From assembly GCF_020804225.1 (NCBI RefSeq), contig NZ_WJBI01000001.1, positions 309,773 through 373,772 of the forward strand: DNA of 64,000 bases, given 5' to 3'. Position 1 is the stretch's first letter; the number at the start of each line of letters is the position of its first letter. The notes beneath the pieces are model-generated. The model searched no databases. It saw only the letters and a program-made list of their open reading frames with translations, and was not told the DNA's origin. The DNA is from Methanosarcina sp. DH2. GTDB taxonomy: Archaea > Halobacteriota > Methanosarcinia > Methanosarcinales > Methanosarcinaceae. This document shows positions 1 to 1,564 of the stretch, in pieces. Both the position numbers and the translations under genes were made by a program.

Positions 1-816
1 TCCGATCTGATCGAAATGAGGGGCAGTGGAGCCTATGACCATATAAAAGACCTGATTGAAAGAGGATTTGTTGAGTCTGTGCCCAGCGGGAGAAGCAGGC
101 AGCTTTCCACAACCCCGCTGTTTGCAGATTATTTCGGGCTCAAAAGGAACGATCCTGAAGCCATAAAGGAGAAAATCATTGAGCTGTTAAGGGTGCAGGG
201 AGAACAGAGTGAGATCAACCTGTGGGTCGGAAAAAAGACCATTGCTGTGACTCCAATGTATGAGTCCCTTATGGGAATGTGCGGAATTAAAGACTATTTT
301 GTTGCGAATGCCTATCGTCCTTCTAAGGAAGAAATATCCCGCCTGCTTGAGGCCGACGTGCTTGTGGTCTCTGCCGGCTATCTTGATACCGTGAGGCAAC
401 ACTGCGATGGAGAAATCCTCGAGGTGCGTTCAACAACCTTTGAAGACCTTATCGAAGCAATCTCTCTAATCTCTGAAGAACTTTCCGATGAAGTGGACCC
501 TAAAATGGTAGCAAACACTCTTCAGAAAATCAGGGATACCCGGGAAAAATATGTATCTTCGGCTTTCCTCGTTGAGAGGAAGGTAAGACCTGCAACTGAG
601 ATGGTTTCGAGGCTCGTAAATGACCTAAATATAAGAATTTCTACAGACGGCGTCCTTGTTGCTCCTGATTATGGGACTTCAGGTGAGGGAGTGAGCATAG
701 GGAAAGGAGCTAAAATTCTGGTGCCCACCCACCGCACTGTAGAGGGCGACCTTCTTGAGAGGGTCTGCAAAAAATACGATTCTATCCTTGAAGGTTTGAA
801 TAATTTCGAAGATTGA
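1..816 (+). CDS. ScpB-like segregation/condensation protein, 5' end outside window
   Basis: The frame is open from base 1 and reads SDLIEMRGSGAYDHIKDL before the first internal ATG at 16, so the gene begins upstream of the window. The first 45 residues (RGSGAYDH, LIERGFVES, TTPLFADYFGL) match the winged-helix C-terminal part of ScpB, the kleisin-associated subunit of the SMC-ScpAB condensin. About 220 further residues follow that are not part of ordinary ScpB; they contain an alpha/beta-looking segment (ADVLVVSAGYL) that I do not recognise. I infer a chromosome-segregation protein with a lineage-specific C-terminal domain. A fusion or a different winged-helix protein cannot be excluded because the N-terminus is missing. 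It is followed by about 200 bp containing the tbp promoter. Confidence 0.55.
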   Translation, partial: SDLIEMRGSGAYDHIKDLIERGFVESVPSGRSRQLSTTPLFADYFGLKRNDPEAIKEKIIELLRVQGEQSEINLWVGKKTIAVTPMYESLMGMCGIKDYFVANAYRPSKEEISRLLEADVLVVSAGYLDTVRQHCDGEILEVRSTTFEDLIEAISLISEELSDEVDPKMVANTLQKIRDTREKYVSSAFLVERKVRPATEMVSRLVNDLNIRISTDGVLVAPDYGTSGEGVSIGKGAKILVPTHRTVEGDLLERVCKKYDSILEGLNNFED

Positions 817-925
817 GGCTCCAAAAAGCCAGCGCGGATGCCTCTAATCTTTCTTACTTTTTTTGAAAACACTGGCGCCCACAATTTAAGCTTTTCTGTC
901 GTATTTATATTCTATATATATAGCA

Positions 926-1000
926 TTTATATACTATGCGAGGCATTTAACTATAGCTTTATATACTGGTTAGAGGATATTACTTTTTGCTTTATATACT
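926..1000 (+). promoter_or_regulatory. Triple TATA-box array in front of tbp
   Basis: The ten bases TTTATATACT occur three times, at 926-935, 958-967 and 991-1000, that is 32 and 33 bp apart, close to three helical turns. The last copy ends 12 bp before the tbp ATG, too close to drive tbp itself with a usual start site about 25 bp downstream. It could instead be a TBP-binding roadblock. Confidence 0.6.
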
Positions 1001-1012
1001 GAGGGTTGACTA

Positions 1013-1564
1013 ATGAGCGAATCTAGCATTAAAATTGAAAACGTGGTCGCATCCACCAAACTCGCTGAAGAGTTTGATTTAACTGTGATTGAATCCAAGT
1101 TCGAAGGCGCCGAGTACAACAAGCAGAAGTTTCCGGGGCTCGTCTACAGGGTTTCTGACCCTAAAGCCGCTTTCCTGGTCTTTACTTCCGGAAAGGTTGT
1201 CTGTACGGGAGCAAAAAACGTTGCTGATGTGCACACAGTTATTGGCAATATGGCAAAAAAGCTGAACGGTATAGGGATCGAGACAATAGAAAACCCGCAA
1301 ATTACTGTCCAGAACATAGTTGCCTCAGCAGATCTGCGCACTATCCTTAACCTCAATGCAATTGCAATCGGGCTTGGGCTTGAGAATATCGAATACGAAC
1401 CCGAGCAGTTTCCCGGTCTTGTATACAGGATCGATGACCCTAAAGTAGTTGTGCTTATTTTCAGTTCCGGTAAACTGGTAGTCACAGGCGGAAAAACCCC
1501 CGAAGACTGTGAGAGGGGCGTGGAAGTTGTTCGTCAGCAGCTCGATAACATGGGGCTTTTATAA
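1013..1564 (+). CDS. tbp: TATA-box-binding protein
   Basis: This is the general transcription initiation factor that binds archaeal TATA boxes and recruits TFB and RNA polymerase. The 183-residue protein shows the two imperfect direct repeats that form the saddle: IKIENVVAS with [18 protein letters not shown] and [10 protein letters not shown] in the first half, and ITVQNIVAS with [18 protein letters not shown] and [10 protein letters not shown] in the second. Length is normal for archaeal TBP. The ATG at 1013 is preceded by a weak GAGGGTTGAC Shine-Dalgarno segment. It stands alone, and three identical TATA boxes precede it, suggesting autoregulation. Methanosarcina genomes usually carry more than one TBP; which paralogue this is cannot be told here. 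Confidence 0.97.

What the first reader, a model, noticed from the sequence alone, without database searches (positions are those of the whole stretch)
926..1000. Three identical, helically phased TATA boxes in front of tbp
TTTATATACT occurs at 926, 958 and 991, 32-33 bp apart. The last copy is only 12 bp before the start codon and cannot drive tbp. TBP bound there would cover the start region. This suggests TBP autorepression, with copy number set by its own DNA-binding occupancy. The repeats are seen; autoregulation is inferred.
Basis: partly seen in the sequence, partly recalled or inferred. Interest (0 to 1): 0.6.

Follow-up and report, generated by a model that had tools for sequence, protein, structure and literature searches.

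The report
TATA-box array before archaeal tbp genes
The gene for the archaeal TATA-binding protein carries extra copies of that protein's own binding site right up to its start codon, in methanogens and across two archaeal phyla, which suggests that the protein limits its own production.

Summary
Confirmed and extended. TTTATATACT lies at 926, 958 and 991 before tbp (1013-1564; 0.11 copies expected per window). In 30 Methanosarcina genomes TATA-type boxes occupy -86/-54/-22, a 32-bp period. The window's 33-bp gap is a private 1-bp change. Box 3 is TTTATATA in 30 of 30, and too close to the ATG to drive tbp. The dispensable paralogs tbp2/tbp3 lack the array. Widening the search gave the main result. 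In 20 sampled families of the window's phylum, tbp carries 2.0 TATA-like boxes in its last 60 bp, against 0.28 for 540 neighbouring genes (>=2 boxes: 41/52 vs 20/540, P=8e-38; permutation z=15), 0.47 for AT-matched genes, 0.54 for thermosome and 0.37 for Alba genes. A second phylum shows it too (11/19 vs 11/238, P=6e-9). Spacings cluster near one, two and three helical turns. Best explanation: the upstream box is the promoter and the boxes over the start region are TBP operators, making tbp self-limiting; TBP is needed for its own transcription, so the loop would otherwise be purely positive. Architecture and conservation are shown; binding and repression are inferred. No held paper describes it; key subscription papers could not be read.

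The parts
904..922 (+). degenerate AT block TTTATATTC-TATATATA upstream of box 1 (possible fourth/fifth TATA element)
   Evidence: read directly; a TATA-like block at -99/-97 in many Methanosarcina; weakly conserved
926..935 (+). box 1, TTTATATACT; likely the (or an) actual promoter TATA, predicted start about 952-957
   Evidence: at -86 in most Methanosarcina genomes, degenerate (TTTATAAA) in L025 and L027; start position inferred from the usual TATA-to-start distance
958..967 (+). box 2, TTTATATACT; predicted start about 984-989, just before box 3; alternatively an operator over the box 1 start
   Evidence: at -54 in all Methanosarcina (TATATATA in L028/L029, CTTATATA in L017); at -50 to -56 in most other genera of the family
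991..1000 (+). box 3, TTTATATACT; predicted start about 1017-1021 inside the ORF, so non-productive; proposed TBP operator
   Evidence: TTTATATA in 30/30 Methanosarcina, 9 of 10 columns invariant in 26 genomes; CTTTAAATA at the same place in Methanolobus and others; 0 of 295 genes of another Methanosarcina have TTTATATA in their last 30 nt
1001..1004 (+). GAGG, Shine-Dalgarno-like, directly after box 3
   Evidence: nearly invariant block in the alignment
1013..1564 (+). tbp, TATA-binding protein, 183 aa (main TBP, orthologous to tbp1)
   Evidence: Pfam PF00352 2e-59; 94-98% identical orthologs in nearly all Methanosarcina genomes

Best explanation
The array is a built-in TBP sensor on the tbp gene. 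The upstream box (box 1 or box 2) is the working promoter. The further boxes, which sit on the start site, leader and start codon, are binding sites for TBP itself (alone or with TFB). When free TBP is abundant they fill, or nucleate unproductive initiation complexes, and block the productive complex. When TBP is scarce only the promoter box is used. Because tbp cannot be transcribed without TBP, the loop would otherwise be purely positive; the extra boxes add the negative arm that holds TBP at a set level. Shown: the boxes, their conservation, their enrichment at tbp against all controls, and the position of the last box too close to the ATG for a usable TATA. Inferred: that TBP occupies them in the cell and that occupancy lowers tbp transcription.
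For: Three perfect boxes, conserved register -86/-54/-22 in the genus, box 3 the most constrained element. 0 of 295 genes of another Methanosarcina have such a box in their last 30 nt. Paralogs tbp2/tbp3 lack the array (17 of 19 have no box in about the last 60 bp). Phylum-wide: 2.04 boxes in the last 60 bp of tbp vs 0.28 in 540 background genes, dinucleotide shuffles 0.37, z=15; >=2 boxes 41/52 vs 20/540; a box starting at -24 or closer 24/52 vs 26/540 (P=4e-15); AT-matched genes 0.47; permuted motifs of the same make-up 0.04-0.25. Present in most of 20 sampled families, including 63-70% GC haloarchaea. Thermosome genes, many with a plain conserved TATA, have >=2 boxes in 1/28 and Alba in 2/30. 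Second phylum 11/19 vs 11/238. Box sequences differ between clades but all stay TATA-like, which points to TBP itself rather than a lineage-specific repressor. Archaeal repressors are reported to bind mostly downstream of the initiation complex (PMC4287449). The M. acetivorans tbp1 transcript is steady across three growth conditions (PMC5112694), compatible with homeostasis.
Against: No binding, footprint, start-site or expression data. Archaeal TBP-DNA complexes are very short-lived (0.18 s for M. jannaschii), and Sulfolobus acidocaldarius TBP bends DNA only with TFB (PMC4041446), so a TBP-only roadblock may be weak; TFB or cooperation between boxes may be needed. Upstream BRE-like matches did not differ between first and later boxes, so 'promoter box' and 'operator box' could not be told apart by BRE. 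In Methanosarcina the spacer between boxes 2 and 3 is also strongly conserved, so other constraints act there. A few lineages (ANME-2-like and families f2, f7, f10, f12) lack the array.
Confidence: 0.55

Rival explanations
1. Tandem promoters: each box drives its own start, giving strong or condition-robust tbp expression with several leaders.
For: Boxes 1 and 2 are correctly placed for starts about 57 and 25 nt before the ATG; multiple start sites per gene are common in Methanolobus psychrophilus (PMC5378194). Each predicted start falls just before the next box.
Against: Box 3, and the last box in 24/52 phylum loci (start at -24 or closer), would start inside the ORF. Thermosome genes, many with a conserved clear TATA, have one box. 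Boxes 9-13 bp apart cannot both hold a full initiation complex (established geometry).
Confidence: 0.2
2. Positive self-loading: the array raises local TBP concentration at its own gene and speeds promoter capture, an antenna rather than a brake.
For: Archaeal TBP binds briefly (PMC4041446), so neighbouring sites could aid rebinding; helical phasing would put TBPs on one face.
Against: Boxes lying on and beyond the start site would be in the path of polymerase; TBP is already required for its own transcription, so a further positive arm would destabilise TBP level (compare the bistability model for eukaryotic TBP, PMC2928763).
Confidence: 0.1
3. Leader/translation feature: box 3 is kept as an AU-rich, unstructured leader next to the Shine-Dalgarno, and its TATA likeness is incidental.
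For: Box 3 abuts GAGG and the -26 to ATG block is near-invariant; leader RNA is not more folded than shuffles (z 0.7-0.8).
Against: 0/295 other Methanosarcina genes have TTTATATA there; in the phylum, TATA-like words are 2.04 per 60 bp but permuted A/T words are 0.04-0.25, so it is TATA shape, not A/T richness; the pattern also holds in lineages whose boxes lie at -27/-15, as in leaderless promoters.
Confidence: 0.1
4. A dedicated tbp regulator, not TBP, recognises the repeated box.
For: Regular 32-bp repeats with some extended similarity (GC-TTTATATACTG); spacer conservation.
Against: Between clades the repeated word changes (TTTATATA, TTTAAATA, TATATATA, TTTATAAA, TTTAAAAA) but always remains TATA-like, as expected for TBP.
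Confidence: 0.05

Closest known systems
Archaeal repressors that block their own promoter by TATA/start-site occlusion (e.g. Sulfolobus Lrs14; title cited in PMC2121645, details from general knowledge)
   Same: a DNA-binding protein with sites overlapping the TATA/start region of its own gene
   Different: there a gene-specific repressor excludes TBP; here the sites are TATA boxes and the proposed repressor is TBP, the general factor itself
Ordinary archaeal core promoter (BRE-TATA-Inr, one TATA about 26 bp before the start)
   Same: the upstream box has the sequence and position of a normal TATA
   Different: further boxes follow, up to the ATG, where normal promoters (thermosome control) have one
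Eukaryotic TBP auto-regulation model (PMC2928763)
   Same: TBP is required for its own gene, giving positive feedback
   Different: there the negative arm is TBP dimerisation; no extra TATA boxes are involved
Genes with several start sites in Methanosarcinaceae (M. psychrophilus dRNA-seq, PMC5378194)
   Same: several promoter elements upstream of one gene
   Different: the box next to the ATG cannot yield a full-length message, and spacings are near whole helical turns

Membership tests
Direct negative autoregulation by operator occlusion | sites matching the protein's known recognition sequence in its own promoter | tested here: met
   TATA-like boxes enriched at tbp, 2.04 vs 0.28 per 60 bp; second phylum 1.53 vs 0.29
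Direct negative autoregulation by operator occlusion | at least one site lies over or downstream of the start site, where it cannot promote | tested here: met
   box start at -24 or closer in 24/52 tbp vs 26/540 genes; box 3 at -22 in the window. The start sites themselves are predicted, not mapped
Direct negative autoregulation by operator occlusion | arrangement conserved in orthologs but absent from dispensable paralogs | tested here: met
   30 Methanosarcina genomes; tbp2/tbp3 paralogs lack it
Direct negative autoregulation by operator occlusion | protein occupies the sites and occupancy lowers transcription | not testable with these tools
   needs footprinting, in vitro transcription, reporter assays
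Ordinary single-TATA archaeal promoter | one TATA box per start | tested here: not met
   three boxes in the window; 46/59 phylum tbp loci have >=2 in 60 bp vs 1/28 thermosome genes
Ordinary single-TATA archaeal promoter | BRE directly upstream of the TATA | tested here: inconclusive
   too few reference promoters for a matrix; RNWAAW match equal for first and later boxes
Tandem productive promoters | every TATA lies far enough upstream to give a full-length message | tested here: not met
   box 3 ends 12 bp before the ATG
cis-RNA regulator in the leader | known RNA family or unusually stable fold | tested here: not met
   no Rfam match; fold z 0.7-0.8

The most novel reading that the evidence does not exclude
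Across Archaea (two phyla sampled) TBP directly represses its own gene through arrays of two to five helically spaced TATA boxes laid over the start region: a general transcription factor whose cellular level is set by competition between its own promoter and its own decoy boxes.
Probability: 0.45. Interest if true: 0.82.

Novelty: new variant of a known kind. Interest (0 to 1): 0.72.

Why it matters
How cells set the amount of a factor that every gene needs, including its own, is an open question. The array offers a concrete, testable answer written in the DNA, and it is conserved over very distant archaea. If true, it turns TATA boxes from promoter elements into operators, contradicts the expectation that archaea avoid multiple TATA boxes (stated in PMC4802759), and gives a simple promoter-swap experiment in tractable archaea such as Methanosarcina and Haloferax.

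Tried and rejected
BRE matrix from a Methanosarcina genome: only 12 reference contexts, discarded. BRE comparison between first and later boxes: no difference. tfb as a control: mostly inside operons by the look of the upstream DNA, so weak (2 of 30 with >=2 boxes in 60 bp); replaced by thermosome and Alba. RNA structure and Rfam: nothing. Chance or simple tandem duplication: rejected as the full account, because boxes are kept across genera while spacers diverge and clade-specific TATA variants replace each other. Reichlen 2010 (TBP1-3 in M. acetivorans) and what I believe to be the M. mazei start-site paper (PNAS DOI tried) are not held. No held paper was found on a TATA array or autorepression of archaeal tbp. 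Limits of my statistics: ORF-based gene starts for the background, related genomes counted separately within families, and the box word YWTAWAW chosen after seeing the loci; permuted words, shuffles, AT matching, thermosome/Alba and a second phylum answer the last point in part.

Full report
What is there. The window is from a Methanosarcina genome. TTTATATACT lies at 926, 958 and 991 on the + strand and nowhere else in 64 kb; 0.11 copies are expected. The gene behind it (1013-1564) is tbp (Pfam TBP 2e-59). Box 3 ends 12 bp before the ATG and is followed directly by GAGG. An upstream AT block (904-922) may be a further, degenerate element. No other triple of TTTATATA within 80 bp occurs in the window or in 400 kb of a second Methanosarcina genome. 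In that genome 0 of 295 genes have TTTATATA in their last 30 nt.

Conservation in the genus. Thirty tbp loci from Methanosarcina genomes (including the window) were read. Boxes start at -86, -54 and -22, an exact 32-bp period. The window's 33-bp gap and one other species' shift are 1-bp differences. Box 3 is TTTATATA in 30/30. Box 2 changes to TATATATA or CTTATATA, and box 1 to TTTATAAA, in a few species. Conservation by element in 26 genomes: box 3 0.996, box 2 0.969, box 1 0.958, spacers 0.88 and 0.94, further upstream 0.80, third codon positions of tbp 0.77. The second spacer is thus constrained too, so not all constraint is on boxes. A DNA search finds the array only at tbp (the one extra hit is a 29-bp remnant before a tandem tbp copy). 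TATA pairs at this spacing are rare, 1-11 per genome.

Paralogs and duplicates. tbp2/tbp3 paralogs have no array: 17 of 19 have no TATA-like word in about the last 60 bp. M. acetivorans TBP1 is required for growth, TBP2 and TBP3 are dispensable (PMC3960522), and the tbp1 transcript is similar across three growth conditions (PMC5112694). In two genomes tbp is tandemly duplicated; the second copy, 79 bp behind the first, keeps only a damaged box 3 (TTTATATG).

The family. In other Methanosarcinaceae genera boxes recur near -85, -74, -53 and -21 (Methanolobus, Methanomethylovorans and others), with box 3 as CTTTAAATA just before GAGG-ATG in Methanolobus. Names come from the annotated records.

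Wider Archaea. Methanothrix tbp genes carry several TATA-like boxes 9-17 bp apart; other lineages carry two or three, often to the ATG, for example TATATATA-GGG-TTTATAAA-GGTC-TTTAAATATG. To measure this, 20-kb pieces around tbp were taken from 59 genomes of the phylum. TATA-like words (YWTAWAW) in the last 60 bp: tbp 2.04 (52 loci), 540 neighbouring genes with at least 50 bp upstream space 0.28, dinucleotide shuffles of the same DNA 0.37; choosing one random gene per locus gives z=15. Two or more boxes: 41/52 against 20/540 (P=8e-38). A box starting at -24 or closer: 24/52 against 26/540 (P=4e-15). AT-matched genes have 0.47, and permuted words of the same make-up 0.04-0.25 (the reversed and reverse-complement words are enriched too because the box is nearly palindromic). 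With seven haloarchaeal loci added it is 46/59, and the pattern holds in most of 20 families, including genomes of 63-70% GC; f2, f7, f10 and f12 lack it, as do ANME-2 records. Thermosome genes, many with a clear conserved TATA, have >=2 boxes in 1/28 and Alba in 2/30. In a second phylum (that of a record titled Ca. Methanosuratincola, i.e. Thermoproteota by name) it is 11/19 against 11/238 (P=6e-9), with pairs such as TATTTAAATA and TTTATAAA at -27 and -15.

Spacing. Successive boxes are mostly 9-13, 19-24 or 28-33 bp apart. Phase concentration at 10.5 bp is R=0.31 for 93 spacings from distinct patterns, against 0.12 for 278 background spacings. The loci are related, so this is suggestive only. 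In Methanosarcina the 32-bp period also equals the TATA-to-start distance plus a few bases, so each box sits on the predicted start of the one before it. Start predictions use the 19-22 nt figure for Methanolobus (PMC5378194) and the usual archaeal geometry.

Mechanism. The first usable box would be the promoter; the boxes on the start site and leader would be operators for TBP. Whichever of boxes 1 and 2 is used, box 3 lies at or after the start. TBP is needed for its own transcription, which by itself gives positive feedback (bistability model, PMC2928763); downstream boxes would supply the negative arm. Caution: archaeal TBP-DNA complexes last fractions of a second in M. jannaschii, and S. 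acidocaldarius TBP needs TFB to bend DNA (PMC4041446). A blocking TBP-TFB or abortive initiation complex is therefore at least as likely as TBP alone. No BRE difference between first and later boxes was found.

Known or not. No held paper reports this; one paper modelling the origin of transcription systems expects selection against multiple TATA boxes in archaea (PMC4802759). Two central papers could not be read, so novelty is likely but not certain.

Verdict. Autorepression by TBP is the best explanation (0.55), unproven.

Noticed in passing
L134 (G000:C2:121728-121766, - strand): A second conserved TATA pair, TTTATATA and TTTATATA 31 bp apart (TTTATATATTTCTCTATGCTTTTTACGTAAATTTATATATC), lies shortly before a gene whose product reads as phosphotransacetylase (pta, identified by eye), and recurs in most Methanosarcina genomes.
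   Followed up: partly
L011 and L006: tbp is tandemly duplicated (starts 631 bp apart); the downstream copy, 87% identical in L011, has lost boxes 1 and 2 and has a damaged box 3.
   Followed up: partly
L035-L047: Many of the tbp2/tbp3-like paralogs share a different conserved upstream block, CCGACAAT...CTATAGAAC...GATATATGTTGTATG, possibly their own control element.
   Followed up: no
L351, L353 (tfb loci): Two tfb genes, haloarchaeal by inference, have a TATA at -35 and a second TATA-like word at -12 (CTATAAAAGTGCGATG), similar to the tbp pattern.
   Followed up: no
window 16-816: The gene upstream of tbp has only a weak Pfam match (ScpB, 8.9e-7, over its first 44 residues); most of the protein has no family. 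The ORF may begin before the window.
   Followed up: no
L230 / G232: A contig titled Ca. Methanosuratincola carries a Methanothrix-type tbp with its TATA array, while a different tbp lies elsewhere in the same assembly (L362): probable contamination.
   Followed up: partly
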